Positions 6,052 through 30,461 of a stretch of 64,000 bases of DNA are shown here, piece by piece; the first letter of the stretch is position 1; each line of letters begins with the position of its first letter. The DNA is from Kribbella sp. NBC_01245 (GTDB taxonomy: Bacteria; Actinomycetota; Actinomycetes; Propionibacteriales; Kribbellaceae). The notes under the pieces are model-generated. The model did no database searches. It saw nothing but the letters and a program-made list of their open reading frames with translations, and had not been told where the DNA came from. Location: positions 3,720,001-3,784,000 of the forward strand of contig NZ_CP108487.1 of the NCBI RefSeq assembly GCF_036226525.1, read 5' to 3'. A program made the position numbers and the translations under genes.

Positions 6052-6201
6052 GCCCCAGCTCCTCACCCTCGACAGATGGGATGAATGTAGGAGACCTACT
6101 CGGCAGAGGCAAGAGTCAATCTGCAAGAATCTGCACGAAATAGCCGATTACCGATCACGATCGCCCTCGACGGCTAACCTCCGCCGCGACGGACTGCCGT
6201 G

Positions 6202-8953: not shown

Positions 8954-10855
8954 CTAAGCGAGGGGGAGCCAGACGCGCATCGCGGCGGGGCCGCGGTTGG
9001 CCCAGGCGTGATACGGGATGGCTGTGACGGTGATGGGGGCGCCGGTCGCTGATGCCGGCTCGTAATGCTCGTACAAGGCGGACCCGAGTGGCCGGATCAC
9101 GGCGGACAACCGGAGTCGTACGGGCGTGATGTCGTCCGCCGCGTGCTCCTCGGTAATGCTCGCCGACGGGTCCAGGCGCAGCTGCTCGACCAAGACGCCG
9201 TCGGGCAGGTCGACCTGCTCCACGCAATACACGAGTGGGCCGCGTTCGACCGCCACACAGCCGCGTACGGCGTCGACGCGCTCGTCGGCGCGCACAAGGC
9301 GTGGCGTCATCGGCAGCGTGAGCCGCACCGTGGCGCCATCCTCGCAGGACACCCGCAGATACGAGCCGGGCGTCGGTTCTGCCAACACACGCGCACCGGC
9401 AACGTCGACGGTGGCGCCTTCGGCCCAAGCCGGAACACGTACGGCGAGTTCGCCCTGGCCGCTGACGGTCACCAGTACGTCGCCGTCCCACGGGTAGCCA
9501 GTCTCGACGACGACCTTCATACTCCCCGCGGTGAACGTCCCCGGGGTCAGGAGATGCAGCTGTACGCCGGAAGCGTCCGACGTCGCCGCGTAGCCGTGCA
9601 GGGATGCGAACAGGCGAGCGAGGTTCGGCGGGCAGCACGCGCAGTCGTACCAGGGCAGGCGCTCGCTGGGCGCGTCCTCGCTCGAACCGTCGTGACCATT
9701 GCGCAGCTGCAACGGGTTGGAATAGAAGAAGGCGGTCCCGGTGTGGGTCATCGACGCCGCGATCGCGTTGAGCAGCGCGCGTTCCATCTCCTCGGCGTAC
9801 CGGGCCCGCCCTGTCGCCAGGAGCATGCGCCAGCACCACTGCAGGGCGGCGATCGACGCGCAGGTCTCGGCATACGCGCGGTCCGGCGGCAGCTCGTACG
9901 GATCGCCGTACGCCTCGTCGCGGTGCCGGGAGCCGTGCCCGCCGGTGATGTACATCTTGGTGCCGAAGGCGCTTTCCCACAGCTGCTCCATCGCGTCGAG
10001 CAGCGTCTGGTCGCCGTTCTCCAGGTACAAGTCCGTGACGCCGGCGGCCAGATATAGCTGGCGAACCGAGTGCCCGATGGCCTCGGTCGCCTCGCGCACT
10101 GGGAGATGGTCCTGGAGGTACTGCGGGCCGAAACGCCCAGCTTCCAGGGAGCCATGCCCACGCCGTTCGACCTGAAGCTCGGCGGCGCGTAGGTAGGCCT
10201 CCTCCCCTGTCTCGCGGTAGAGCTCGATCAGCGCGGTCTCCACTTCGGGATGCCCGTCGATGATCGGCCGGCCGTCTTCGCCGAAGGAGCGGACCACCAG
10301 GTCCGCCATTCGCCGCGCGATCGTCAGGAAGCGCTCGTCGCCGCTGCCGCGATGAAGCGCGACAGCGGCCTGCATGAGGTGTCCGGCGCAGTAGAGCTCG
10401 TGCGTGAACTCGGGGCGGTCGAACGGCACCTCGCCCGGCGTCCCCTGCACATACGTGTTGAGGTAACCGTCCGGCAGTTGCACCCGTTCGAGCAGGCCGG
10501 CCACGTCGGTCAGCATCGCGGCCCACTGGTCGGTGCCGGTGCGCCCGATCTCCCAGCCGATCGCCTCGAGGGTCTTGTAGAGGTCGGAGTCCGCGAACCA
10601 GAACCCCCGGAACTTGCCTTCTGGTGTTTCCTGGCCGGCCTCGTCGAGGCGGCGGAAGTTCGCGATGACGCCCGTGCGCTCCACGTTCTGCACGCAATGC
10701 GGAATCGTGGCCGCGGCGTTGAGCTCCTGCCAGCCGCCGAGCAACGATGCGGGATCCAGCTGTACGGCGCTCAGCGGCAACGGCGTGAGATGCGCGAGTC
10801 GTCGCGGCACGGCCGGTCCAAGGGTGCGAGTCAGCGCGTCGATGTGAAGATTCAC
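8954..10855 (-). CDS. Beta-L-arabinofuranosidase, GH127 (DUF1680)
   Basis: A 633-residue cytoplasmic enzyme of the GH127 family, which cleaves beta-L-arabinofuranosides such as those on hydroxyproline-rich plant glycoproteins. The GTG at 10855 has AGAGG seven bases upstream. The zinc/nucleophile set of the family is present: Glu330 and Cys332 in AYAETCAS, then Cys407 and Cys408 in CACCPPN, matching the Glu-x-Cys ... Cys-Cys layout of HypBA1. The substrate-site stretch PDGYLNTYVQG is also present. No signal peptide, so it acts on imported oligosaccharides. It is divergent from a LacI regulator, with paired operator motifs between the genes, so regulation by that protein is likely. Confidence 0.93.
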   Translation of the reverse strand: MNLHIDALTRTLGPAVPRRLAHLTPLPLSAVQLDPASLLGGWQELNAAATIPHCVQNVERTGVIANFRRLDEAGQETPEGKFRGFWFADSDLYKTLEAIGWEIGRTGTDQWAAMLTDVAGLLERVQLPDGYLNTYVQGTPGEVPFDRPEFTHELYCAGHLMQAAVALHRGSGDERFLTIARRMADLVVRSFGEDGRPIIDGHPEVETALIELYRETGEEAYLRAAELQVERRGHGSLEAGRFGPQYLQDHLPVREATEAIGHSVRQLYLAAGVTDLYLENGDQTLLDAMEQLWESAFGTKMYITGGHGSRHRDEAYGDPYELPPDRAYAETCASIAALQWCWRMLLATGRARYAEEMERALLNAIAASMTHTGTAFFYSNPLQLRNGHDGSSEDAPSERLPWYDCACCPPNLARLFASLHGYAATSDASGVQLHLLTPGTFTAGSMKVVVETGYPWDGDVLVTVSGQGELAVRVPAWAEGATVDVAGARVLAEPTPGSYLRVSCEDGATVRLTLPMTPRLVRADERVDAVRGCVAVERGPLVYCVEQVDLPDGVLVEQLRLDPSASITEEHAADDITPVRLRLSAVIRPLGSALYEHYEPASATGAPITVTAIPYHAWANRGPAAMRVWLPLA

Positions 10856-12089: not shown

Positions 12090-14360
12090 TTAGTTGTCCT
12101 TGGCAACCATTAGCCAGCTGATCTGGATGTCCGGCGAGCGCGTCGGTGCAACGGTGACGGTGATCTTGCCGTCCGCTCCAACCACGATGCCGCCGTACGC
12201 CGCTGCCGCGTTGGTGCCGGTGAAGAGCCGTTCCTGATCGACGACTGCTCCGTTCACCATCACCTGAGCCGCGCGATTCGCCCACGGCCAGGGATCGAAG
12301 TACCCCGCGTGCACGGTGTACGTCCCAGGCTCCAAGCCCTCGAACGTGTAGACGAGCGACTCGTGGTTCTTGGCGTACCGCAGGGTGCTGTACAGATCGC
12401 CACTACCCGCCGGAGCACTCGAGCCCGTGTATCCCCAGGTCGTCCCGGTGACGGGATCCACGCCCAGCGCTTGCTCAGGCCCGGAGTTGAGCAGCGGGCC
12501 TTCGCCGGCAGCGACCTCCGTCAGACGTTTCCAGTCCGGAGTGGCCACCCCGCCCGCGTTGACGGCGTACCGCAGGCCATGCGGGACCACCACGACCGTC
12601 CGGGTGAACGTGCGCCCGTCCGAGAGTGTGCCGCGGAGACTCGCCGGCCCTGGCTTTGCGACCGTTGACGCGTCCCAGGTGACCGACAGCTGGGTCGATC
12701 CCTTTGCGGTCGTGACGCTGACCTGGTTCGGGAGATTGCTCGTATCGTCCAGCCACACGTGGTCCGGTAGCACCGTGCTGACGGTCCAGCGTTGATAGGG
12801 CTGGAGGTCGCCGAGCTTCCACTCCTGGTCCGGGCCGATCGACAGGCTGCCGCCCTCACCGAAGCGCATCGGCATCCAGACGTACGGCGCGTTGGCGAGG
12901 TCGTTGGGGGTCCACCGGTCGCCCATGTAGAGGTACTTCCCGGCCGCGCGGTCGTACGGAATCACGTTGGTGCTCTGCGATCGGAAGGTGTTCGCCGCGC
13001 CGTCCCCGCTGATCGGGTTGCCGCGGTCGGTCCATTGGCCGAGGATGCTTTGCGCGGTGGCATACCTGGCCGGGTTGGGATCCCAGCCGGTCGCGCCGGA
13101 CGTGACCAGGTAGTACGTGCCCTCGGACTTGAACATCGCCGGCGCCTCACGCTGGTTACACGGCAGCGTGCGAACGAAGTCCTTGCCCTGTACGGCGTCC
13201 TCGGGCTTGGCGGAAAGGTACGTGTAATCCCCTCTGAGCTTGGAGATGTACATCGTCCGGTTCTCCTCGGACGAGTAGATGATGTACCCACTGCCGTCGT
13301 CGTCGACGAAGAGCGTCATGTCCCGGGCCATGCCGCCGGCCGGGTCGAACGCCGACGACGTACCGCACCAAGGCACGGAGTCACTCGGCACCCGGTTCAG
13401 CCGGTATGAGTCGATCCAGCGGAACGGCCCCTTCGGCGAATCGGACACCGCCACACCCGCCTCGGCGCGCGCGTACGTCGACGTACTGGTCGGTGATGAC
13501 GGCCCGTCGGAGTGCACCCACATGACCCACTTGCCGGTCGACTTGTTGTAGATGACCTTCGGGCGCTCGAGGATCGACGGCCTCGCCCAGCCGTCCGTGC
13601 GCACGCTGTTCGTCGACAGGTCCCGCCAGACGATCTCCTTCTGCGCTGCGGTGTATCGCCCGTAGAGCTTGGCGAAATACTTGTCGGTCTCGAACTGGTC
13701 GGGAGAACTCAGAGCCCGCAGTGCGAGCCCTTCGTCCTTCCAGTTGTAGAGGTCGTACGACGCGTATACGTGGACGCCGGGGCTGTCGTAATACCCCTTG
13801 CTGCGGTCCTCGCCGTACCAGTACCAGATGCGTCGGCCGTAGTCGTCGGTCGCGGGAACGACCTGGCCACCGTGAGCCTGGATCACCTTCCCGTTCGTAT
13901 CCCGCCACTCCGCCCCCGGCCGGAACGACTCGTAGGCCGCGGCGGAAGCGGACTCGGCGGATGCCGGGCCCGCTCCCGCCGAGACGAGCACGGACAAGGT
14001 CAGAGCCGCGAGCGTGACGGCACCTGTGGCGAGGAGCTTTCTGAGGTTTTGACGTCCTCCACCCGCCTGAAGGCGAGGGATTCCAACCCGCCACCCGGAG
14101 GTAGCAGGCTGCGGTTCGCGGATCGTAGCCGTGCCCAACTGCGCAAGAAGGCTCACCGCGCTGCCACGGCCCGCCCGGCCGCAGTCACCACAAGGTCTAA
14201 CGATGGTGCAGGTGCCGGCCGCTTGGTTATCGCAGGCCAGCACTGCAAAACGTACCCGACGCCCCCGACAAAACCCTAAAAGGAGAGACCGGCGCTTCCT
14301 CCCCGCCATGACGGACGGGGTGCCCACGCCGGACGATCGATTAGAGCTGGGCGATTTCAT
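12090..14360 (-). CDS. GH43 enzyme (exo-beta-1,3-galactanase-like) with disrupted N-terminus
   Basis: A 756-residue open frame. Rough layout: residues 1-12 from the original start, 13-103 encoded by an IS200/IS605-type element, 104-135 a signal peptide core (NLRKLLATGAVTLAALTLSV then an Ala-rich end), a GH43 five-blade propeller at about 140-500, an Ig-like domain, and a C-terminal galactose-binding or malectin-like domain. The stretch IQAHGG followed by WYWYGEDRSKGYYDSPGVHV and YASYDLYNWKDEGLALR is typical of GH43 subfamilies 24/34, which include exo-beta-1,3-galactanases acting on arabinogalactan. The ATG at 14360 has GAGGA eight bases upstream and lies 24 bases after the GH5 stop, so the two form an operon. 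The insert keeps the frame but places about 100 residues before the signal peptide, so export may be lost unless an internal start is used. Confidence 0.85.
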   Translation of the reverse strand: MKSPSSNRSSGVGTPSVMAGRKRRSLLLGFCRGRRVRFAVLACDNQAAGTCTIVRPCGDCGRAGRGSAVSLLAQLGTATIREPQPATSGWRVGIPRLQAGGGRQNLRKLLATGAVTLAALTLSVLVSAGAGPASAESASAAAYESFRPGAEWRDTNGKVIQAHGGQVVPATDDYGRRIWYWYGEDRSKGYYDSPGVHVYASYDLYNWKDEGLALRALSSPDQFETDKYFAKLYGRYTAAQKEIVWRDLSTNSVRTDGWARPSILERPKVIYNKSTGKWVMWVHSDGPSSPTSTSTYARAEAGVAVSDSPKGPFRWIDSYRLNRVPSDSVPWCGTSSAFDPAGGMARDMTLFVDDDGSGYIIYSSEENRTMYISKLRGDYTYLSAKPEDAVQGKDFVRTLPCNQREAPAMFKSEGTYYLVTSGATGWDPNPARYATAQSILGQWTDRGNPISGDGAANTFRSQSTNVIPYDRAAGKYLYMGDRWTPNDLANAPYVWMPMRFGEGGSLSIGPDQEWKLGDLQPYQRWTVSTVLPDHVWLDDTSNLPNQVSVTTAKGSTQLSVTWDASTVAKPGPASLRGTLSDGRTFTRTVVVVPHGLRYAVNAGGVATPDWKRLTEVAAGEGPLLNSGPEQALGVDPVTGTTWGYTGSSAPAGSGDLYSTLRYAKNHESLVYTFEGLEPGTYTVHAGYFDPWPWANRAAQVMVNGAVVDQERLFTGTNAAAAYGGIVVGADGKITVTVAPTRSPDIQISWLMVAKDN
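14049..14325 (-). mobile_element. IS200/IS605-derived hairpin element (PATE-like remnant)
   Basis: Read on the minus strand, the segment begins near a hairpin CCCCGTCC...GGCGGGG (14301-14320) and ends with GGAATCCCTCGCCTTCAGGC and GGGTGGAGGACGTCAA (14049-14084), the hairpin and terminal pattern common at the right end of tnpB-type elements, where the omega-RNA scaffold ends. No transposase gene remains; a short Cys-containing stretch (CTIVRPCGDCGR) may be the decayed tnpB end. The element lies within the 5' part of the GH43 gene, in frame. The left boundary is approximate. Confidence 0.6.
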
Positions 14361-20430: not shown

Positions 20431-21465
20431 TTAGGTGCGGGGTGGTGCGGTGCTGGTGCGGATGATTAGTTCTGTGCCGACGCTGACTGGTTGGTGGTGG
20501 TGTTCGCCGGCCTGGATCTCGCCGATCAGCGAGTCGACGCTAAGCCGGCCAACCTCGGCGAACTGCTGCCGGATAGTGGTGAGCGGCGGCCAGAAGTGCG
20601 CGGCCTCCTCGACATCGTCGAAACCGACCACGCTGACGTCACCCGGCACCGCCCGCCCCGCCTCATGCAGAGCACGCAAAAGCCCCAACGCCATCTGGTC
20701 ATTGGCTGCGAACACGGCCGTGACGTCCGCATCGGCCGCCAACTTCCGCCCGGCCTCATACCCGGAACCCGCCGACCAGTCCCCGACCAACACCGTCGGC
20801 ACCACGCAACCGCGATCCGTCAACGTCTGCTGCCACGACCGCCGCCGCCTGGTCGCGGCAAACGAGTACGGCGGCCCACCGAGGTGCCACACCGTCGTAT
20901 GCCCGAGATCCAGCAGATGCTCCGTGGCTAGACGCGCGCCCTGCGCCTGGTCGGTGTCGACAACGGGATAGTCGTACAGCGCGCTCGAATCGACCACGAC
21001 AACGGGCAACCCCTCAGGCAGCAACACCTCGGCCTCGTCGAGTTTGTACGCCTCGATCAGGATGATCACACCATCCACCGCCTGCTGCCCCAGCCGGGTG
21101 AACGCGTTCGAGACCGCGCCCTGGGTGGCGTCCAGCACGGGCAGCAGGTTGACCGCATAACCCCGGATCGTGGCCGCCGCGGCGATGGCGTCGAGCGTGC
21201 GGGTGGTGCCGATACTGGAGAGCTCGAAGACGATCACGCCGATGCTCCGGGACTGGCCGCTGCGCAACGCCCGCGCGGCACTGTTCGGCCGGTAGCCGAC
21301 CTTCCGCATCGCCGCCAGCACCCGGTCCCGGGTGGCCGCGTCCACGTTCGACCGATCGTTCGCGACCCGCGACACCGTCTGTCCGGACACCCCGGCCAGG
21401 CGGGCGACATCGGCCATCGACGGCCCGCGCCGCCGTACCGGGCTCGGTGTTTCGTCCCCCGCCAT
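20431..21465 (-). CDS. LacI family transcriptional regulator (transporter-linked)
   Basis: A 344-residue LacI/GalR repressor. The ATG at 21465 has AAAGGAG six bases upstream, and the HTH begins 15 residues later: PSMADVARLAGVSGQTVSRV, with hinge NSAARALRSGQSRSIG. The ligand domain shows QAVDGVIILIEAY and GDVSVVGFDDVEEAAHFWPP. It is divergent from the sugar ABC permease gene at 21576. Two ATGTTGACGTAAACA(T/C) palindromes lie between them, and near-identical palindromes precede the GH5-GH43 operon, so it probably represses importer, enzymes and itself until an oligosaccharide binds. Confidence 0.93.
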   Translation of the reverse strand: MAGDETPSPVRRRGPSMADVARLAGVSGQTVSRVANDRSNVDAATRDRVLAAMRKVGYRPNSAARALRSGQSRSIGVIVFELSSIGTTRTLDAIAAAATIRGYAVNLLPVLDATQGAVSNAFTRLGQQAVDGVIILIEAYKLDEAEVLLPEGLPVVVVDSSALYDYPVVDTDQAQGARLATEHLLDLGHTTVWHLGGPPYSFAATRRRRSWQQTLTDRGCVVPTVLVGDWSAGSGYEAGRKLAADADVTAVFAANDQMALGLLRALHEAGRAVPGDVSVVGFDDVEEAAHFWPPLTTIRQQFAEVGRLSVDSLIGEIQAGEHHHQPVSVGTELIIRTSTAPPRT

Positions 21466-21489
21466 CGGAGCTCCTTTCGGACTGTGGAC

Positions 21490-21539
21490 ATGTTGACGTA
21501 AACACGCTACCGTCCCCCGGGTGATGTTGACGTAAACAT
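21490..21539. promoter_or_regulatory. Double LacI-type operator between LacI and ABC genes
   Basis: ATGTTGACGTAAACAC (21490-21505) and ATGTTGACGTAAACAT (21524-21539), 34 bp apart centre to centre. The second is a near-perfect palindrome about the central CG. Same sequence class and nearly the same spacing as 15929-15979. Confidence 0.78.
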
Positions 21540-21575
21540 CGACGCGTCGGGCGAAATCAGAAGGAGGTCGACCGC

Positions 21576-22481
21576 ATGGCCGGGCCCATCGCACTGCGGC
21601 AGCGGCGCAGGTGGTTCAGCACCGAGAGCAAGGGGTGGATCTTCGTCGGTCCCTTCCTCGCCGTCTTCGCGCTCACCTTCCTCGCGCCGATCGCCTACGC
21701 GATCTATCTCAGCCTCTTCCGCGAGCAGGCCTTCTTCGGCGGCAACGTGTTCGTCGGCCTGGACAACTACGTCGACGTGATCGGTGACGCGAAGTTCTGG
21801 GAGTCGTTCCTGCGGGTGCTGCTGTTCCTCGTCGTCCAGGTGCCGATCATGTTGGTGCTGGCACTGGTCGCCGCACTTGCGATCGACAGCGCCCGCCTGC
21901 ACGGGGCGAGCTTCTTCCGGATCGTGATCTTCCTGCCGTACGCCGTTCCCGGCGTAGTCGCCGTACTGATGTGGGGCTTCATCTACGGCAACAACTTCGG
22001 TCTCGCGGCAGACCTCAACGAACTGCTCGGCACCACGTCGATCCAGCCGCTGAGCAAAGGCTGGATGCTGCCCTCGATCGCGAACATCGTGACCTGGGAG
22101 TTCGTCGGCTACAACATGCTGATCTTCTACTCTGCGCTGCGAACCGTGCCCGAGGAGCTGTACGAGTCGGCCGCGATCGATGGCGCGGGCACGTTCCGGA
22201 TCATCCGGGCGGTCAAACTCCCGGCGCTGCGCGGCGCGATCGTGATCGCCACCATCTTCTCGATCATCGGCAGTTTCCAGCTGTTCAACGAGCCCAACAT
22301 CCTGCGCACGCTGGCGCCGAACGTGATCACGACCTACTACACGCCGAACATGTACGCCTACAACCTCTCCTTCGCCGGGCAGCAGTTCAACTACTCGGCC
22401 ACCGTCGCCATCGTGATGGGCATCATCACGGCCGTGATCGCCTACGTCGTGCAGCTGCGCGGCTCGAGGGAGGCATTGTGA
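21576..22481 (+). CDS. Sugar ABC transporter permease (MalF type)
   Basis: A 301-residue inner-membrane permease with six predicted helices, the first at about residues 21-42 (WIFVGPFLAVFALTFLAPIA). The EAA loop that docks the ATPase is ELYESAAIDGAGTFRIIRAV. The ATG is preceded by AGAAGGAGG. It is the first gene of the importer operon, and its stop overlaps the GTG of the next permease. No ATPase gene follows; in related actinobacteria a shared MsiK-type ATPase encoded elsewhere serves such importers (known for the group, inferred here). Likely cargo is a galactose/arabinose-containing oligosaccharide, judging from the adjacent GH35. Confidence 0.93.
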   Translation: MAGPIALRQRRRWFSTESKGWIFVGPFLAVFALTFLAPIAYAIYLSLFREQAFFGGNVFVGLDNYVDVIGDAKFWESFLRVLLFLVVQVPIMLVLALVAALAIDSARLHGASFFRIVIFLPYAVPGVVAVLMWGFIYGNNFGLAADLNELLGTTSIQPLSKGWMLPSIANIVTWEFVGYNMLIFYSALRTVPEELYESAAIDGAGTFRIIRAVKLPALRGAIVIATIFSIIGSFQLFNEPNILRTLAPNVITTYYTPNMYAYNLSFAGQQFNYSATVAIVMGIITAVIAYVVQLRGSREAL

Positions 22482-23359
22482 GCACCAGGCCCTCTGTGAG
22501 CAACTCCTCGCCGCTCCGGCCGCGCCGGTCGCCCTTGCTGACCGGGATCATGGTCCTCTACCTCGTCTACACATTGGTGCCGCTGATCTGGTTGTTGCTC
22601 AGCGCAACCAAGTCGCAGGACGACCTGTTCTCCAGCCCCGGCCTTTGGTTCGGCGAGGGGTTCGCGTTGTTCAGCAACATTCGCGACACCCTGACGTACG
22701 ACGGCGGCATCTTCCTGCGCTGGCTCGGAAACACCTTGCTGTACGTCGTTGTGGGCGCGGGCGGGGCCACCCTGCTCGCCACGGCCGCGGGGTACGGACT
22801 GGCCAAGTACAAGTTCGCCGGCCGCCGAGCCGTCTTCGCCGTACTGCTGGGCGCGGTCGCGATTCCCGGCACGGCGCTCGCGGTGCCGACGTTCCTGATG
22901 TTCTCGAACCTGGGCCTGACGAACACCGTGTGGGCCATCATCATTCCGTCGCTGATCAGCCCGTTCGGCCTCTACCTGATGTGGGTCTACGCCCAGGACG
23001 CCGTACCGCCGGACCTGCTCGAGGCGGCTCGGCTCGATGGCGCCGGCGAGATCCGGATCTTCTTCACCGTCGCCTTGCGATTGCTTGCCCCCGGCATCGT
23101 TACGGTGCTGCTCTTCGCGGTGGTGTCGACCTGGAACAACTACTTCCTGCCGCTGATCATGCTCAGCAAGCCGAGCCTCTACCCGCTCACGGTCGGCCTT
23201 ACCCAGTGGAGCAATCAGGCCACCGGCGTCGGCGCCCGTCCCATCTACAACCTGGTGATCACGGGGTCCTTGCTGACCATCGTCCCGCTGGTCATCGCCT
23301 TCCTTCTCTTACAGCGGTTCTGGCAGTCGGGCCTGACCGCCGGCAGCGTCAAACAGTAG
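22478..23359 (+). CDS. Sugar ABC transporter permease (MalG type)
   Basis: A 293-residue permease. The GTG at 22478 overlaps the previous stop (GTGA) and has GGGAGG five bases upstream; the open frame extends further 5' only as a shadow inside the first permease. It has six helices and the EAA loop DLLEAARLDGAGEIRIFFTV, with the MalG-type C-terminal helix VPLVIAFLLLQRFWQSGLTAG. It pairs with the MalF-type protein to form the channel of the importer. Confidence 0.93.
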   Translation: MSTRPSVSNSSPLRPRRSPLLTGIMVLYLVYTLVPLIWLLLSATKSQDDLFSSPGLWFGEGFALFSNIRDTLTYDGGIFLRWLGNTLLYVVVGAGGATLLATAAGYGLAKYKFAGRRAVFAVLLGAVAIPGTALAVPTFLMFSNLGLTNTVWAIIIPSLISPFGLYLMWVYAQDAVPPDLLEAARLDGAGEIRIFFTVALRLLAPGIVTVLLFAVVSTWNNYFLPLIMLSKPSLYPLTVGLTQWSNQATGVGARPIYNLVITGSLLTIVPLVIAFLLLQRFWQSGLTAGSVKQ

Positions 23360-23388
23360 GTGTCATTTCAATGAAGGGGAACAACGCC

Positions 23389-24741
23389 ATGAAGACCAAC
23401 CATCGGCGCGGCATCCGGCGTCTAGTCGCTGCCGCTGCCGTCATCACGGCCTCCTCGCTCGTACTGGCCGCGTGCGGCTCGGGCGACGACGCCGGTGCCG
23501 GCGACCAGCCGCAGGGCTCTCCGGACGCGGTCAACGCCGCGCTCGAGGCGGGCGGCACGATCACCTACTGGAGCTGGACCCCGTCCGCGGAGGCCCAGGT
23601 GAAGGCGTTCCAGAAGGAGTACCCGAAGGTCAAGGTGAACTACGTCAACGCCGGTACCGGCAATGACCACTACACCAAGCTGCAGAACGTCATCAAGGCC
23701 GGCTCGGGTGCTCCGGACGTCGCGCAGATCGAGTACCAGGCGCTGCCGCAGTTCGCGCTGCCCGGTTCGCTGGTCGACCTGCGCCAGTACGGCTTCGACA
23801 GCTTCGAGTCCGCCTACACCCCGTCGACCTGGAACGCCGTACACGCCGGCGAGGGTCTCTACGGACTGCCGCAGGACTCGGGACCCATGGCGATGTTCTA
23901 CAACAAGGACGTCTTCGACAAGTACGGCCTGACCGTGCCGAAGACCTGGGACGAGTACGTTGCCGCCGGCAAGAAGCTGCACACGGCGGACCCCAAGAAG
24001 TTCATCACCAATGACACCGGTGACGCCGGCTTCGCGACCAGCATGATCTGGCAGGCGGGCGGTAAGCCGTTCAAGACCGACGGAAAGAACATCACCGTCG
24101 ACCTGGCGGACGCCGGCACGCAGAAGTGGACCGGGGTCTGGAACCAGCTGGTCACGGGCGGCCTGGTGGCGAGCATTCCCGGCTGGTCGGACGAGTGGTT
24201 CAAGGCGCTGGGCGACGGCACCATCGCCACCCTGCCCACCGGCGCCTGGATGCCCGGCGTGATGGAGGCCTCGGTCAAGCCCGGCGCCGGCAAGTGGCGT
24301 GTCGCGCCGATGCCGACGTACGACGGAACGCCGGCGACGGCCGAGAACGGCGGCAGCACGCAGTCGGTCCTCAAGCAGAGCGCGAACCCCGCGCTGGCGG
24401 CCGCGTTCGTGCGCTGGCTGAACCACGACGGCGGCGTCAAGCCTTTCCTCGAGAGCGGCGGCTTCCCGGCGACCACCAAGGACCTCAAGGACCCGACGTT
24501 CGTCGACAAGAAGAGCGCGTACTTCGGTGGCCAGCAGATCAACCAGGTCCTCACCGCGGCGGCCGGCGAGGTCGTCAAGGACTGGAGCTACCTGCCGTTC
24601 CAGCTGTACGCCAACAACATCTTCGGCGACAGCGTCGGGAAGTCGTACCAGACCAAGTCGGACCTGAACACCGGGCTCAAGGCCTGGCAGGACGCGTTGG
24701 TTGCCTACGGCAATCAGCAGGGTTTCCAGGTCAACGGCTAA
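23389..24741 (+). CDS. Sugar ABC transporter substrate-binding lipoprotein
   Basis: A 450-residue lipoprotein. The ATG at 23389, with AAGGGGA upstream, gives MKTNHRRGIRRLVAAAAVIT and a lipobox LVLAAC; a second ATG at 23371 would only add six residues. SBP_bac_1 features: ITYWSWTPSAEAQVKAFQKE, AQIEYQALPQFALPGSLVDL and FATSMIWQAGGKPF. It is the cognate binding protein of the two permeases just upstream (30-base gap) and the GH35 gene follows 39 bases later in the same operon. Controlled through the double operator at 21490-21539, most likely. Confidence 0.94.
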   Translation: MKTNHRRGIRRLVAAAAVITASSLVLAACGSGDDAGAGDQPQGSPDAVNAALEAGGTITYWSWTPSAEAQVKAFQKEYPKVKVNYVNAGTGNDHYTKLQNVIKAGSGAPDVAQIEYQALPQFALPGSLVDLRQYGFDSFESAYTPSTWNAVHAGEGLYGLPQDSGPMAMFYNKDVFDKYGLTVPKTWDEYVAAGKKLHTADPKKFITNDTGDAGFATSMIWQAGGKPFKTDGKNITVDLADAGTQKWTGVWNQLVTGGLVASIPGWSDEWFKALGDGTIATLPTGAWMPGVMEASVKPGAGKWRVAPMPTYDGTPATAENGGSTQSVLKQSANPALAAAFVRWLNHDGGVKPFLESGGFPATTKDLKDPTFVDKKSAYFGGQQINQVLTAAAGEVVKDWSYLPFQLYANNIFGDSVGKSYQTKSDLNTGLKAWQDALVAYGNQQGFQVNG

Positions 24742-24780: not shown

Positions 24781-26517
24781 ATGGCCGACTTCGCGATCGG
24801 TGCGTCCGATTTCCTTCTCGATGGCAAGCCGTTCCGGATCCTGTCCGGGGCCCTGCACTACTTCAGAGTGCACCCGGGGTCTTGGGCGGACCGGATCGAG
24901 AAGGCGCGGCTGATGGGCCTCAACACCATCGAGACGTACGTGCCGTGGAACGCGCACAGCCCCCGCCGGGGTGTGTTCGACACCGAGGGCATGCTCGATC
25001 TCGCGGCCTTTCTGCGACAGGTGTCCGAGGCCGGGCTGTACGCCATCGTGCGGCCCGGCCCGTACATCTGTGCCGAGTGGGACAACGGCGGCCTGCCGGC
25101 CTGGCTGTTCCGGCAGCCCGGCGTCGGCGTCCGGCGGTACGAGCCTCAGTTCATGGCAGAGGTCGAGGAATACCTCCAGCAGGTCTTGCGCATCGTGCGG
25201 CCGCTCCAGGTCGACCAGGGCGGGCCGGTTCTGCTCGTCCAGGTCGAGAACGAGTACGGCGCGTTCGGCGATGACCAGGTTTACCTGAAGTCGGTGGCCG
25301 AGATCATCCGGCGTTCGGGCATCACCGTGCCGCTGGTGACGGTGGACCAGCCGGTCGACGCCATGCTCACCGCCGGCGGCCTGGACGGCGTACTGCGGAC
25401 GGCCTCGTTCGGATCGCGCAGCGCCGAGCGGCTCGAGACGCTGCGCGCTCACCAGCCGTCCGGACCGCTGATGTGCATGGAGTTCTGGGACGGCTGGTTC
25501 GACCACTGGGGCGGGCCGCACCACACCACCAGCGTCGACGAGGCGGCCGCCGAACTCGAGGCGCTGCTCGCCGCCGGCGCTTCGGTCAACATCTACATGT
25601 TCCACGGCGGCACGAACTTCGGATTGACCAGTGGTGCCAACGACAAGGGCGTCTACCGTCCGACGATCACGTCGTACGACTACGACGCGCCGTTGGACGA
25701 GGCCGGCAACCCGACGCCGAAGTACGACGCGTTCCGGGAGGTCATCTCGCGGTACGCGCCGGTCCCGGCCGAAACGCCTTCGCGCGGCGCCTCGGTGCCG
25801 TCGTACACCGTGCCGCTGGGCGATCCCGTTCGCCTGCTGGCGAATCCCGGCCGGTGGGGCGCCTGGAGCGACCACGGTTCGATGCCATCGCTCGATGAAC
25901 TCGATGCCCGGCTGGCCCTTTTCCGGACCGACATCAACGTCGAAGGTCCGGCGTTGCTGGCCGTCGACGAGGTGCGGGATCGCGCGACGGTGTTCCTGGA
26001 CGGGGATCCGGTCGGCGTGCTCGATCGCGAACGCCATGACCAGGCGATCATGCTGCCGCGCGGAACCGGCCGGCTCGAGATCGTCGTCGAGGACCAGGGC
26101 GGGGTGAACTACGGAACCCGGATCGGCGAGGCGAAGGGCCTGATCGGGCCGGTACGCCTCGGCTCGGAGGTGCTGTCGAACTGGTCCGCCTGCGCGATCG
26201 ACCTGGATGCCGTGCCGCGTCTATCCCTGGAGAGCGACCTCCCGGGCGTTGGACCGACGGCCTGGCGGGCGTCGTTCGAGGTGGGGCAGACCACCGACCT
26301 CTTCCTCCACACCGAGACGTGGGGCAAGGGAATGGCCTGGCTCAACGGCTTTTGCCTCGGCCGCTACTGGCGAAGAGGTCCGCAGCACACGCTCTTCGTG
26401 CCCGAACCGGTCGTACGCTCCGGCCGCAACGAGCTTGTCGTACTGGAACTCGACGTCATGCCCGATCCGACTGCCCGCTTCGGCCCCGCAGCGTCTTTGG
26501 GGCCTTTGGAACTGTGA
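24781..26517 (+). CDS. Beta-galactosidase, GH35
   Basis: A 578-residue intracellular GH35 exo-beta-galactosidase with no signal peptide. The family opening FLLDGKPFRILSGALHYFRV is near the N-terminus; the acid/base is Glu158 in QVENEYG and the nucleophile Glu234 in MCMEFWDGW, with the typical HGGTNFG after it. The C-terminal half holds jelly-roll domains (GKGMAWLNGFCLGRYW). The start at 24781 follows AGAAAGAGA. It is the fourth gene of the importer operon, so imported galacto-oligosaccharides are probably cleaved by it to galactose in the cytoplasm. Confidence 0.95.
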   Translation: MADFAIGASDFLLDGKPFRILSGALHYFRVHPGSWADRIEKARLMGLNTIETYVPWNAHSPRRGVFDTEGMLDLAAFLRQVSEAGLYAIVRPGPYICAEWDNGGLPAWLFRQPGVGVRRYEPQFMAEVEEYLQQVLRIVRPLQVDQGGPVLLVQVENEYGAFGDDQVYLKSVAEIIRRSGITVPLVTVDQPVDAMLTAGGLDGVLRTASFGSRSAERLETLRAHQPSGPLMCMEFWDGWFDHWGGPHHTTSVDEAAAELEALLAAGASVNIYMFHGGTNFGLTSGANDKGVYRPTITSYDYDAPLDEAGNPTPKYDAFREVISRYAPVPAETPSRGASVPSYTVPLGDPVRLLANPGRWGAWSDHGSMPSLDELDARLALFRTDINVEGPALLAVDEVRDRATVFLDGDPVGVLDRERHDQAIMLPRGTGRLEIVVEDQGGVNYGTRIGEAKGLIGPVRLGSEVLSNWSACAIDLDAVPRLSLESDLPGVGPTAWRASFEVGQTTDLFLHTETWGKGMAWLNGFCLGRYWRRGPQHTLFVPEPVVRSGRNELVVLELDVMPDPTARFGPAASLGPLEL

Positions 26518-26678
26518 GCCGGTCGGTTCCGATCGACTCTGATCGTTTCTGTTCGGCTCGTTGACCGGCACTACGCCATGCACTGAAGTGGTCTTCCGTC
26601 ACTCAACCAGGGGACGGCTATGACGCTGCGTGCGCAACCGCCCGGCGCGCGCGTCACCTTTCAATGAGGAGAAGCGCC

Positions 26679-28154
26679 ATGGACTCACCCGTAAAGATCA
26701 ACCGCCGAACCCTGCTCGCCGCAACCGGCGGCGCGGTCGCGGCCGGAACCCTCGGCACCGGCGTGGCGTGGGCCGACGCCACCGTGGGTGTCGACCCCGC
26801 CGCCGACCAGGGCGCGTGGGAAGGCTGGGGCACCTCCCTCGCGTGGTGGGCCAACGTGTTCGGCGATCGGGACGACTTCGCCGACCTGTTCTTCACCACC
26901 AAGACGGTGAGCTACAACGGCGCCTCGCTGCCCGGTCTCGGCATGAACATCGCCCGCTACAACCTTGGCGCCTGCAGCTGGAACGACGTCGGCGGCGAGC
27001 GCATGGTCGCCTCGCCCAACATCCCGCGGTTCAAGCAGATCGAGGGCTTCTGGCAGGACTGGCGCAACGAGGACCCGGCGTCCTCGGCGTGGAACTGGAA
27101 CGCCGACGCCAAGCAGCGCGCGATGCTGGTCAAGGCGACCCAGCGCGGCGCGATCAGCGAGCTGTTCGCCAACTCGCCGATGTGGTGGATGTGCTCGAAC
27201 CACAACCCGTCGGGCTCGGCAAGCGGCGGCAACAACCTCCAGTCGTGGAACCACCGCCAGCACGCGCTGCACCTGGCCGTCACCGCGCGCCGCGCCCGTG
27301 ACCAGTGGGGCGTGAACTTCCGGACGGTGGACCCGTTCAACGAGCCGTCGTCGAACTGGTGGAAGGCCGATGGCGGGCAGGAGGGCTGCCACATCGACGC
27401 CACGACCCAGCGCAGCGTTATCGCCAATATGCGCACCGAGCTGGACCGGTTGGGCTTGAGCGGCGTGGCGATCTCGGCGTCCGACGAGACGAACTACGAC
27501 CTCGCCCGCACGACGTGGAACAGCTTCGACTCGACCACCAAGGGCCGAGTGAAGCAGGTCAACGTGCACGGCTACCAGGGCCTGAGCGGTCGTCGCGATC
27601 TACTGAGCAACGACGTACGCGCGTCGGGCAAGATCCTGTGGAACTCCGAGCACGGCGACTCCGACGGCAGCGGCATGATGACGGCCCGCTGCCTGCTGAT
27701 GGACTTCCGCTGGCTCAAGCCGACGGCGTGGTGCTACTGGCAGGTGATGGACCCGACGGCCGGCTGGGGCGCGATCCGGTACGACGGCAACTCGGGGACG
27801 GCCGGCGCCATAGAGACGAAGTTGTACGTGCTCGCCCAGTTCACCCGGCACATCCGGCCAGGGATGCGGATCATCAACGCAGGGGTGGATTACGCGGTGG
27901 CGGCGCACGACTCGGCCGCGAGCCGACTGGTGATCGTTGCCGCGAACAACGGTGCGGCGCAGACGTTGACGTTCGACCTGTCGCGGTTCGGCACGGTCCC
28001 GAACGGCACGGCCACCCGCTGGTCGACGCTGACGTCGGGATCCGGCGACCGGTACACGCGGCGGCAGGACCTCACGGTGAGCGGGAAGGTCGTGCGCGTG
28101 CCGTTCGCGGCGGGCGCCGTGCAGACGATCCAGGTGGACGGCGTGGTCCGATGA
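26679..28154 (+). CDS. Tat-exported endo-beta-1,6-galactanase-like GH30 enzyme
   Basis: A 491-residue exported glycosidase. The ATG at 26679 has GAGGAG upstream and opens a Tat signal (INRRTLLAATGGAVAAGTLG). The clan-A barrel carries acid/base Glu222 in DPFNEPSSNWW and nucleophile Glu324 in LWNSEHGDSDG; Trp-rich motifs WGTSLAWWANVFG and ELFANSPMWWMCSNHNPSG are characteristic of GH30 subfamily 5 endo-beta-1,6-galactanases, which cut the side chains of type II arabinogalactan. A C-terminal beta domain follows (from about 400). Its stop overlaps the start of the BNR_4 gene (ATGA), so the two are coupled. A 161-base gap separates it from GH35, where a separate promoter could lie. Confidence 0.9.
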   Translation: MDSPVKINRRTLLAATGGAVAAGTLGTGVAWADATVGVDPAADQGAWEGWGTSLAWWANVFGDRDDFADLFFTTKTVSYNGASLPGLGMNIARYNLGACSWNDVGGERMVASPNIPRFKQIEGFWQDWRNEDPASSAWNWNADAKQRAMLVKATQRGAISELFANSPMWWMCSNHNPSGSASGGNNLQSWNHRQHALHLAVTARRARDQWGVNFRTVDPFNEPSSNWWKADGGQEGCHIDATTQRSVIANMRTELDRLGLSGVAISASDETNYDLARTTWNSFDSTTKGRVKQVNVHGYQGLSGRRDLLSNDVRASGKILWNSEHGDSDGSGMMTARCLLMDFRWLKPTAWCYWQVMDPTAGWGAIRYDGNSGTAGAIETKLYVLAQFTRHIRPGMRIINAGVDYAVAAHDSAASRLVIVAANNGAAQTLTFDLSRFGTVPNGTATRWSTLTSGSGDRYTRRQDLTVSGKVVRVPFAAGAVQTIQVDGVVR

Positions 28155-29545
28155 GGACGTTCGTGGCGGCCGCCGTACTCGCCGCTTCCCTGGTCCAGCC
28201 CGGTGTCGCGCACGCCGCACCGGGCGTCACCCTGTTGTCGGACTCCGTGCTGGACCAGTCCGCGCTGTACTTCGTGTCGTACGACGGGTTGGTCAACAAC
28301 AACGCGTTCCAGGATGCGCTGATCACGTACAACGGGCACCAGTACGCGGCGTGGTACACGTCCAGCCGCAACGCCGTGGTCGCGCGGCGTGCGCTGGGCG
28401 GCAGTTGGGAGAAGGTCGTGCTGCCGCACCGGCTGAGCGTCAACGACTCGCACAACGTGATCTCGCTCGGGATCTCGCCGCAGGACGGGACGCTGCACGT
28501 CGCGATGGACACGCACAACACCCGGCTGTACTACTCGAAGTCGGTGGCGGGGCTCGCCACGCAGCCCGGTTCGCACCAGTGGTCGTCGTCGGTTTTCGGT
28601 GCGGTGCAACGGACTTTGGGTGGCGCCGAGCTGGGGAACATGACGTACCCGCAGTTCGTCGTGGCGCCCGGGGGTGCGTTGCAGTTCAGCTACCGGACTG
28701 GTGGGTCGGGCAACGGCGTGAACGAGTTGTCCGAGTACACCGGCGGCACGTGGCGAAAGCTTGGCGGGTGGTCGTCCGCGAGTGGGAACTACACCGGGCC
28801 GAACGGTGTGGTGTCCACGACGCGGAACATGTACCTGCACGGCCTCACCTACGACCGGCGAGGGCGGCTGCACGCGGCATTCACCTGGCGTGAGGGCAAT
28901 GCCCGGGTGCTGTGCAACTCGGGCGGCATCACCAACCACGACACCGGTTATGTCTATAGCGACGATCGGGGCCGGACCTGGCGCAACGGCGCGGGCTCGG
29001 TCGTCGGGACCACTGGCGGCACGCGCGTCTCGATCAGCTCGCCGGGCCTGATCGCGGACCGCCTGGACCCGAACCACGGTCTGATGAACCAGGAGGGGCA
29101 GGGCGCGGACTCCGCCGGCACACCGCATGTCGTGATCAGCTACGTACCGGGGCGGTTCACGCAGTGCGTCTCGAACTATGCGCAGCAACGCACGCAGTAC
29201 GGCCGCACCTTCCACGTGGTGCGCAACTCGAATGGCACGTGGACCAAACGCGAGGTCCCGGTCGCGCCGGGGAGCACGCAACGCACGAAGCTGGTCTTCG
29301 ATCGCAACGACAACGCCTACCTGGTGATGCCGCGTGGCCGGATCGTCTCGGCGAGCAGGGCTAGTGGCTGGACCGACTGGGCCCTGGTCTTCGATCGGCC
29401 GTCGATGAACGCGTTCGGCGAGGTCAACGTCGACACGTCCAGAGTGGCGGTGGACGGCGTCCTGTCGTTCCAGTACCAGCAACGCTCCACCGGCACGACA
29501 CCGTCGGCGATCCGGGTGGTCGACGTCCGCCTCGGCCTCGGCTGA
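28151..29545 (+). CDS. Secreted BNR_4 beta-propeller protein (possible rhamnose-cap-removing enzyme)
   Basis: A 464-residue exported protein with signal MRTFVAAAVLAASLVQPGVA. The body is a BNR_4-type propeller: ITYNGHQYAAWYTSSRNAVV, HNVISLGISPQDGTLHVAMD, YLHGLTYDRRGRLHAAFTWR and PHVVISYVPGRF mark successive blades. This superfamily includes the GH145 and PL42 enzymes that release L-rhamnose from Rha-alpha-1,4-GlcA caps of arabinogalactan; assignment to either is inference. The ATG overlaps the stop of the endo-1,6-galactanase gene, a pairing that makes sense if the cap must be removed as the side chain is cut. Candidate catalytic residues were not identified with confidence. Confidence 0.85.
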   Translation: MRTFVAAAVLAASLVQPGVAHAAPGVTLLSDSVLDQSALYFVSYDGLVNNNAFQDALITYNGHQYAAWYTSSRNAVVARRALGGSWEKVVLPHRLSVNDSHNVISLGISPQDGTLHVAMDTHNTRLYYSKSVAGLATQPGSHQWSSSVFGAVQRTLGGAELGNMTYPQFVVAPGGALQFSYRTGGSGNGVNELSEYTGGTWRKLGGWSSASGNYTGPNGVVSTTRNMYLHGLTYDRRGRLHAAFTWREGNARVLCNSGGITNHDTGYVYSDDRGRTWRNGAGSVVGTTGGTRVSISSPGLIADRLDPNHGLMNQEGQGADSAGTPHVVISYVPGRFTQCVSNYAQQRTQYGRTFHVVRNSNGTWTKREVPVAPGSTQRTKLVFDRNDNAYLVMPRGRIVSASRASGWTDWALVFDRPSMNAFGEVNVDTSRVAVDGVLSFQYQQRSTGTTPSAIRVVDVRLGLG

Positions 29546-29633: not shown

Positions 29634-30461
29634 ATGAGAGTTCGACCGGGCCGGGTTGTGGCGATCGTGTTAGCTGTGGGCGCAGCGTTGAGCACGTTGC
29701 TGACCGCACCGGCGACCGCGGTGGTTGCGGAGCCGTACACGTTTTTGAATCTGAGCTTCAACGTCTGTGGCAACAAGTGCAACAACGGCACGCTCGGGGT
29801 GGCGGACCACGTCGCGAACTCGATCCTGGACCGCCCGACCAGACCCAGGACGGCAACCCTGCAAGAGATCTGCGCCGGCCAGGCCGACCGGATCCGCAAC
29901 CGGCTGGCCGCTGCCGACTACCGGGTGATCCACGTGCCGACCGCGCACCACTGCGACGACGGCTCGGCGTACGGCATCGCACTGGTCCATCGCGGCGATC
30001 GCGACTGGTACAAGGTGCACGACCTGCCGAACCCGGGTAACCACGAACCCCGGAAGATGGTCTGCGCGATGCTGTCGAACCAGCGGTTCATCGCTTGCTC
30101 GACCCACATCGACTTCCACGGCGATGGCACTCGCGGCGCGCAGGTGAGGCGAGTCGCGGCGATCATGGGCGACTACGCCACCGCGGGCCATCCGGCGTTC
30201 GTGGCCGGTGATTTCAACGCCGAGCCGACCGACGACGCGATGGACGACATGTACCGCCCGGCCTACGGTGGCGGCGCGACCGGCATTCACACCGAGGGCA
30301 ACGGCTGCTGCCAACGCTCAGGCCCCGCGACCGCCGATGGTGGCCGCACGATCGACTTCACCTTCATGCGCGCCGCCTCGTTCACCGCGAACTGGTCGGA
30401 CGTCGCACCGACCACCGTCTCCGACCACCACAAACTCTGGGCCAGCATGACCTTGAGCTGA
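29634..30461 (+). CDS. Secreted endonuclease/exonuclease/phosphatase family protein
   Basis: A 275-residue secreted protein with signal MRVRPGRVVAIVLAVGAALS. AGGGAG lies seven bases before the ATG. The DNase I-like fold is shown by LNLSFNVCGN, ATLQEICAGQADRI, HIDFHGDG, FVAGDFNAEPTDD and the closing TVSDHHKLW: the metal Glu, the Asp-Asn pair and the Asp-His pair are all present. Members hydrolyse phosphodiesters or phosphomonoesters; the substrate (nucleic acid, lipid head group) is unknown. Five or more Cys residues suggest disulfides outside the cell. Not clearly part of the glycan operon. Confidence 0.85.
   Translation: MRVRPGRVVAIVLAVGAALSTLLTAPATAVVAEPYTFLNLSFNVCGNKCNNGTLGVADHVANSILDRPTRPRTATLQEICAGQADRIRNRLAAADYRVIHVPTAHHCDDGSAYGIALVHRGDRDWYKVHDLPNPGNHEPRKMVCAMLSNQRFIACSTHIDFHGDGTRGAQVRRVAAIMGDYATAGHPAFVAGDFNAEPTDDAMDDMYRPAYGGGATGIHTEGNGCCQRSGPATADGGRTIDFTFMRAASFTANWSDVAPTTVSDHHKLWASMTLS

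What the first reader, a model, noticed from the sequence alone, without database searches (positions are those of the whole stretch)
28151..29545. BNR_4 propeller coupled to endo-1,6-galactanase: possible new rhamnose-cap enzyme
Overlapping ATGA with the galactanase gene and membership of the superfamily containing GH145/PL42 suggest removal of Rha-GlcA caps of arabinogalactan, not commonly assigned in actinobacteria.
Basis: inference. Interest (0 to 1): 0.5.

Follow-up and report, generated by a model that had tools for sequence, protein, structure and literature searches.

The report
Bacterial rhamnose-cap removing lyase (PL42)
A bacterium's apparently secreted protein, encoded beside a plant-gum-digesting enzyme, is very probably a known type of enzyme that clips rhamnose caps off plant arabinogalactan, and many of its relatives sit beside the genes for using rhamnose.

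Summary
The gene is real: 28151-29545 (+), 464 aa, with an apparent secretion signal, overlapping by ATGA a GH30-type endo-beta-1,6-galactanase. The protein is a full-length BNR_4 propeller whose closest solved relative, by sequence and by predicted fold, is the fungal L-rhamnose-alpha-1,4-D-glucuronate lyase FoRham1 of PL42, the family that absorbed GH145. The catalytic residues of FoRham1 that I mapped, and four of its five rhamnose-binding residues, are identical here and invariant in 82 clade proteins; the 'posterior' hydrolase histidine of BT3686 is Tyr here, as in FoRham1. Context: 32 of 82 loci carry L-rhamnose utilisation genes within 10 kb; in a 150-genome sample of one genus 47 of 54 copies lie within 9.2 kb of rhaI. 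The window also carries an exo-beta-1,3-galactanase-like GH43 and a GH35. Activity, linkage and elimination chemistry are inferred, not shown.

The parts
28151..29545 (+). PL42-type Rha-alpha-1,4-GlcA lyase (BNR_4 propeller), 464 aa; signal peptide about residues 1-22 (by eye); D99, H101, H122, Y166, R182, Y228, R247, N313, Q314, R378, E424
28151..28154 (+). ATGA start/stop overlap with the galactanase gene
26679..28154 (+). endo-beta-1,6-galactanase, GH30 type, with a TAT-like leader (weak Pfam hit below its cut-off)
   Evidence: PDB 24td, E=6.6e-217
24781..26517 (+). GH35 beta-galactosidase, no signal peptide seen (by eye), probably cytoplasmic
23371..24741 (+). extracellular solute-binding protein of the ABC importer (start approximate)
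   Evidence: SBP_bac_1, E=1.4e-37
22478..23359 (+). ABC sugar permease (start approximate)
21576..22481 (+). ABC sugar permease
20431..21594 (-). LacI-family regulator, divergent from the operon (start approximate)
12090..14360 (-). GH43 protein closest to exo-beta-1,3-galactanases (backbone of type II arabinogalactan)
8954..10855 (-). GH127 beta-L-arabinofuranosidase-like protein, possible further arabinogalactan enzyme

Best explanation
The protein is a secreted exo-acting L-rhamnose-alpha-1,4-D-glucuronate lyase of family PL42. In the front ('anterior') pocket of a seven-bladed propeller, R182, with H122 and Y166, neutralises the GlcA carboxylate. H101 (held by D99) takes the C5 proton and returns it to the glycosidic oxygen, so L-rhamnose leaves and the chain end becomes 4,5-unsaturated GlcA. 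R378, E424, N313 and Q314 hold the rhamnose. The galactanase encoded just upstream cuts the beta-1,6-galactan side chains. The products would be imported by the adjacent ABC transporter and trimmed by the GH35 beta-galactosidase. Shown here: gene, fold class, residues, context. Inferred: activity, elimination chemistry, secretion, import and co-transcription.
For: PL42 FoRham1 is the top hit by sequence (1.8e-27; profile 3.3e-46 over nearly the full length, against 9e-27 for the next group, the former-GH145 type, over the first ~280 positions). It is also top by predicted fold: Z 44.1, rmsd 2.3, 393 aligned, against at most 39.5 for the GH145 type, 32.2 for PL24, 30.6 for PL25, about 25 for lectins (model pLDDT 88.3). 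FoRham1 residues D83, H85, H105, Y150, R166, Y202, R220, N275, Q276, R331 and E381 are identical in the window protein and in 82 of 82 clade proteins; S170 in 81 of 82. Roles are from PMC8377490 and PMC10951650 (passages read). Rha genes lie within 10 kb in 32 of 82 loci. In one genus 51 of 53 PL42-bearing genomes also have rhaI, against 46 of 97 without PL42, and 47 of 54 PL42 places are within 9.2 kb of it. Galactanase pairing recurs in 7 of 81 other loci. Exo-beta-1,3-galactanase-like GH43 in the window.
Against: No activity data. FoRham1 Tyr26, which bonds rhamnose O3, is Phe53 here (Phe in 75 of 82, Tyr in 7). Bacteroides relatives release rhamnose from red-wine AGP but not from gum arabic by the lyase site (PMC8406133 passages), so the exact substrate may differ. 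The catalytic core is also present in all seven outlying BNR_4 proteins aligned, one of them in an apparently sulfated-glycan context, so only the rhamnose-site residues and the context speak for the rhamnose cap. No relative of the genome's own two GH88/GH105 proteins was found near any of 82 loci, so removal of the unsaturated GlcA is not seen to be co-encoded; those two lie elsewhere in the genome. In 14 of 82 loci a PL11 rhamnogalacturonan lyase is near, which would also fit a pectin-linked substrate. The window's own rhaI lies 1.7 Mb away. A close galactanase is absent from 74 of 82 loci as far as these reach.
Confidence: 0.85

Rival explanations
1. It is a PL42-type lyase but on another Rha-GlcA-bearing glycan, such as sulfated or methylated AGP or side chains attached to rhamnogalacturonan, not gum-arabic-type caps.
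For: Tyr26 to Phe53; clade insertion after R247, next to residues that touch GlcA at subsite +1 in FoRham1, with Cys255 and Cys339 each in 80 of 82; PL11 near 14 of 82 loci; Bacteroides relatives are selective for wine AGP.
Against: The galactanase partner and the GH43 point to ordinary type II arabinogalactan.
Confidence: 0.09
2. It is a retaining alpha-L-rhamnosidase (hydrolase) acting from the posterior face, like BT3686 of the former GH145.
For: Same superfamily; NCBIfam AlphRhmnaseBT3686 hit at 5.6e-31; rhamnose-gene context fits a hydrolase equally; 18 of 82 clade members have His at the BT3686 His48 position.
Against: The window protein has Tyr60 there, as FoRham1 has Tyr34; the position is Tyr 61, His 18, Phe 2, Glu 1 of 82, while the mapped anterior set is invariant; the NCBIfam score of 107.5 is far below its cut-off of 700.
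Confidence: 0.04
3. It is an ulvan-lyase-like endo enzyme (PL24/PL25 type).
For: Shared catalytic core and fold: PL24 Z 31-32, PL25 Z 30.6.
Against: Lower scores than PL42 by sequence and fold; keeps the Q276, R331 and E381 equivalents that the Alteromonas BNR_4 beside a sulfatase gene lacks; no sulfatase among the 16 window proteins scanned.
Confidence: 0.01
4. It is a non-catalytic sugar-binding propeller (lectin-like).
For: Fold similarity to PLL/PHL lectins, Z about 25.
Against: Conserved catalytic set in 82 of 82 and a much higher match to lyases.
Confidence: 0.01

Closest known systems
FoRham1, L-rhamnose-alpha-1,4-D-glucuronate lyase of Fusarium oxysporum (PL42; PDB 7esk/7esl/7esn)
   Same: Fold (Z 44.1), full-length sequence homology, Asp-His-His triad, Tyr150, Arg166, Rha-site N/Q/R/E, Tyr at the posterior position
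   Different: 25-30% identical; Tyr26 is Phe53; an insertion after R247 and another around residues 332-346, with conserved Cys255 and Cys339; bacterial, encoded beside a galactanase
BT3686, BACINT_00347, BACCELL_00856 (former GH145, now PL42)
   Same: Fold (Z 36-39.4), anterior lyase residues by the literature, Phe at the Tyr26 position in the aligned BT3686
   Different: BT3686 has posterior His48, Tyr60 here; lower similarity; the B. plebeius locus encodes a GH105 with it (passages), whereas no relative of the genome's own GH88/GH105 was found beside this clade
PL24/PL25 ulvan lyases
   Same: Propeller fold; His-His-Asp motif shared with PL42 according to PMC10951650
   Different: Z 30.5-32.2; weak or no sequence match; described as endo-acting on ulvan
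PL27 rhamnose-GlcA lyases such as BT0263
   Same: Also release rhamnose from gum arabic by beta-elimination (PMC8377490 passage)
   Different: Domain structure with an N-terminal beta-sandwich; no listed row or 61 is labelled PL27

Membership tests
PL42 | Sequence homology across the whole propeller to a characterised member | tested here: met
   FoRham1 3.3e-46 over profile positions 33-447 of 448; CAZy's own PL42 model was not available here
PL42 | Seven-bladed beta-propeller like FoRham1 | tested here: met
   AlphaFold2 model pLDDT 88.3; Z 44.1, rmsd 2.3, 393 aligned to 7esl
PL42 | Asp83-His85-His105, Tyr150, Arg166, Tyr202, Arg220 in the anterior pocket | tested here: met
   D99, H101, H122, Y166, R182, Y228, R247; 82 of 82 clade proteins
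PL42 (Rha-GlcA specific) | Rhamnose-binding set Tyr26, Asn275, Gln276, Arg331, Glu381 | tested here: inconclusive
   4 of 5 identical (N313, Q314, R378, E424); Tyr26 is Phe53; Phe also in the aligned BT3686
PL42 | Release of L-rhamnose with 4,5-unsaturated GlcA (absorbance at 235 nm) | not testable with these tools
   needs an enzyme assay
former GH145 hydrolase activity (BT3686) | Posterior catalytic His48 | tested here: not met
   Tyr60; NCBIfam BT3686 equivalog 107.5 bits against a cut-off of 700
PL24/PL25 ulvan lyase | Closest sequence relationship to ulvan lyases | tested here: not met
   ulvan lyases at 5e-11 or weaker against 3e-46 for FoRham1

The most novel reading that the evidence does not exclude
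The actinobacterial clade is a separate, biochemically unstudied PL42 subfamily that forms the secreted front end of the L-rhamnose regulon in many actinobacteria. It scavenges rhamnose from arabinogalactan caps, with its own possibly disulfide-braced insertion at the +1/+2 side that reads the galactan chain carrying the GlcA. Members with posterior His (18 of 82) may carry a second, hydrolytic site as BT3686 does, so the clade would show gain or loss of a second active site in one scaffold.
Probability: 0.3. Interest if true: 0.55.

Novelty: new member of a known kind. Interest (0 to 1): 0.38.

Why it matters
In the passages I read, the characterised PL42 enzymes are from one fungus and from Bacteroidota. 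An actinobacterial clade with the mapped active site, often beside L-rhamnose genes and here coupled by start/stop overlap to an arabinogalactan side-chain galactanase, gives a direct functional hypothesis for proteins annotated only as 'BNR repeat-containing', a supply of candidate enzymes for gum arabic analysis, and a natural series (Tyr/His/Phe/Glu at the posterior position) for testing how the second active site of this scaffold arose.

Tried and rejected
Rejected: posterior-site rhamnosidase (Tyr60), ulvan lyase, lectin. A reading that the gene is always tied to a galactanase was rejected: a close galactanase (63-91% identity, or the window's own) lies beside it in 8 of 82 loci including the window, and a distant GH30-type relative (30-32% identity) in 13 more. 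The reverse also holds: four congeners carry the galactanase at 88-91% identity without any PL42 match, and their DNA similarity to the window stops at 28150-28155.

Led nowhere: a search for unsaturated-glucuronyl hydrolases near the clade (two queries, 0 of 82 loci at 1e-15; the queries were the genome's own two GH88-family proteins, so other subfamilies could be missed). Paper searches: Bifidobacterium with gum arabic, rhamnose and glucuronate lyase gave 1 paper, not opened; Saccharothrix with gum arabic 0; PL42 with Streptomyces 3, two opened as passages, one not opened; BNR_4 with arabinogalactan and Actinobacteria 0; galactanase with Kribbella 1, not opened; Streptomyces with gum arabic, rhamnose, lyase and arabinogalactan 3, of which 2 were listed and none opened. 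None of these listings shows a characterised actinobacterial PL42. The whole-word PL42 search held 45 papers, 40 listed, many unrelated. Papers opened: PMC8377490 (outline, abstract and passages), PMC10951650, PMC8406133, PMC9120177 and PMC11475409 (passages). PMC13169297 was seen only in listings with the start of its abstract. No model coordinates were available in the Python box, so the active-site geometry was not superposed by hand. No family tree was built. The second structure prediction was not used.

Rows dropped and cautions: L007 (a Streptomyces plasmid copy in three pieces) was left out of the residue count. L002, L003, L008, L009 and L010 were reported apart from the 82; L004 and L005 were added only. 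In one search the Alteromonas L009 reads S/H/V/G at the rhamnose site, N/V/V/G: the alignment is uncertain there, but the Q276, R331 and E381 equivalents are missing in both. Of the 32 loci with rha genes, L022 has only a RhaS-like protein (56%, 6.4 kb away). The top-80 list is biased towards close relatives. The Fisher test (1.2e-10) treats genomes as independent and is not corrected for relatedness. At least three of the 54 PL42 places (G473, G486, G494) are partial matches. Some loci are cut by contig ends, so neighbour counts are lower bounds. The five phylum-sample loci belong to the genus searched and are among its 53, so they are not an independent lineage.

Full report
Observation. The ORF 28151-29545 (+) encodes 464 aa beginning with what looks by eye like a secretion signal of about 22 residues. 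Its ATG overlaps the TGA of the preceding gene. That gene, 26679-28154, has a TAT-like leader (Pfam hit below its cut-off) and matches PDB 24td 'Secreted endo-beta-1,6-galactanase' at 6.6e-217 over almost its full length.

What it is. Pfam gives BNR_4 at 1e-86. Against solved structures the single sequence finds FoRham1 first (1.8e-27), then the former-GH145 type (3e-22 to 1e-19), then short ulvan lyases (2e-5 and weaker). A profile from 56 clade members widens the gap: FoRham1 3.3e-46 over nearly the full length, GH145 type 9e-27 and weaker over the first ~280 positions, ulvan lyases 5e-11 and weaker. An AlphaFold2 model (mean pLDDT 88.3, pTM 0.90) gives the same order by fold: FoRham1 Z 42-44 (7esl: 44.1, rmsd 2.3, 393 aligned), GH145 type 36-39.5, PL24-type ulvan lyases 31-32, PL25 30.6, lectins about 25.

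Active site. The FoRham1 papers (passages read) name His85 as base and acid, His105 and Asp83 as its supports, Tyr150, Arg166 as neutraliser, Tyr202, Arg220, and Tyr26, Asn275, Gln276, Arg331 and Glu381 around the rhamnose. In the alignment these fall on H101, H122, D99, Y166, R182, Y228, R247, F53, N313, Q314, R378 and E424. All but Tyr26 are identical. Across the window protein plus 81 actinobacterial relatives (L006 and L011-L090) those eleven are invariant, 82 of 82; Ser170 is kept in 81 of 82. The catalytic core is also present in all seven other BNR_4 proteins aligned (L002-L005, L008-L010), so the rhamnose-site residues carry the specificity argument. The Gln276, Arg331 and Glu381 equivalents are kept in the clade, in two 38-39% relatives (L002, L003) and in a Bacteroides finegoldii protein (L010). 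They are lost in an Alteromonas protein (L009) whose gene lies beside a sulfatase gene with a GH88 gene one further along, and altered in part in L004, L005 and the haloarchaeal L008. The posterior histidine of BT3686 corresponds to Tyr60, as FoRham1 has Tyr34; in the clade the position is Tyr 61, His 18, Phe 2, Glu 1 of 82. So the lyase site is constrained and the hydrolase position is not.

Context in the window. Upstream on the same strand are two ABC permeases, a solute-binding protein and a GH35 beta-galactosidase without a visible signal peptide, with a divergent LacI regulator. On the other strand are a GH43 protein closest to exo-beta-1,3-galactanases (6eug 1e-71; 3vsf, 7bys, 5flw), a GH5 protein with a ricin-B domain and a GH127 protein. 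From the family names this is an arabinogalactan-degrading neighbourhood with backbone, side-chain and cap enzymes (inference).

Context elsewhere. One genome-contig scan found 196 relatives; the best 80 were kept. Within 10 kb, 32 of 82 loci carry at least one L-rhamnose gene: RhaS 32, RhaM 31, RhaI 26, RhaD 18, RhaB 15 (the reference proteins were named by NCBIfam, RhaI, RhaS and RhaD over their curated cut-offs, RhaB and RhaM below theirs). One of the 32, L022, has only a RhaS-like protein 6.4 kb away. In many of the Streptomyces loci (L071-L090) the order is rhaS, rhaM, PL42 on one strand with gaps of tens to hundreds of bases. To lessen the bias of a top-80 list I searched 150 genomes of the genus of G119 (an unnamed handle). 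There 53 have the clade, 97 have RhaI, 51 have both, 2 have PL42 without RhaI (G471, G472), 46 RhaI without PL42, 51 neither. Of 54 PL42 places 47 lie within 9.2 kb of rhaI and the other 7 have no rhaI on the same contig. A phylum-wide sample found 6 of 296 genomes positive, the window's own among them; the other five, all of that same genus and counted among its 53, lie in the same rhamnose cluster. This is strong evidence that the clade yields rhamnose, though it does not by itself tell lyase from hydrolase. Other recurrent neighbours are close galactanases (7 of the 81 other loci), distant GH30-type enzymes (13 of 82) and PL11 rhamnogalacturonan lyases (14 of 82).

Origin of the pair. In the window's genus the PL42 gene is rare: 2 of 38 genomes have any match, the other at 38% identity. 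The galactanase is commoner: 8 of 38, with 88-91% identity in four congeners that lack a PL42 match; DNA similarity to them ends at the galactanase stop. Four Saccharothrix and two Streptomyces loci carry both genes at 79-92% identity (L013, L014, L017-L019, L043), while other Saccharothrix loci show PL42 without the galactanase. Either the pair moved between genera or PL42 was lost in most congeners; I did not test which.

Gaps and contrary points. Nothing has been assayed. Phe replaces Tyr26 in 75 of 82. No relative of the genome's own two GH88/GH105 proteins sits near any of 82 loci; those two lie elsewhere in the genome, one of them near a GH28 pectinase-like gene. The window's own rhaI is 1.7 Mb away, so in this organism the link is to the galactanase, not to the rhamnose genes.

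Known or new. PL42 was already listed for Lentzea (as secreted) and for Streptomyces in genome papers (passages). I found no characterised actinobacterial member in the searches named under Tried and rejected. The linkage to rhamnose genes and the variable posterior residue in this clade were not in the passages I read, and I ran no search for them specifically.

Noticed in passing
L006 and L011-L090, position equivalent to window residue 60: The posterior hydrolase residue alternates Tyr 61, His 18, Phe 2, Glu 1 of 82 (window included) within one clade, sometimes between close relatives.
   Followed up: partly
L118-L122 and many of L006, L027-L090: PL42 genes lie just behind rhaS and rhaM; the mutarotase beside it would fit release of alpha-L-rhamnose (the last point is inference).
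   Followed up: yes
window protein residues 248-260 and about 332-346 (within 28151-29545): Two clade insertions relative to FoRham1, with Cys255 and Cys339 each conserved in 80 of 82; possible disulfide near the +1 side.
   Followed up: partly
window 26523-28155 against L112-L115: Galactanase DNA 85-87% identical in four congeners that lack a PL42 match; similarity stops at the galactanase end.
   Followed up: partly
L007:10001-11279: A PL42 copy on a linear Streptomyces plasmid of 1 Mb is split into three pieces in the search and gives no open frame of 300 aa; broken or a sequencing error.
   Followed up: no
L002, L003 (G053, G019): A second, 38-39% identical PL42-like group beside ABC sugar permease-like genes, with the mapped catalytic and N/Q/R/E residues but Leu at the posterior position (permeases judged by eye).
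   Followed up: partly
window 1699-6126 (-): One protein of 1475 aa combining GH20-type and alpha-L-fucosidase domains.
   Followed up: no
window 29634-30458 (+): Endonuclease/exonuclease/phosphatase-family protein with an apparent signal (by eye), immediately downstream; no link to the lyase seen.
   Followed up: no
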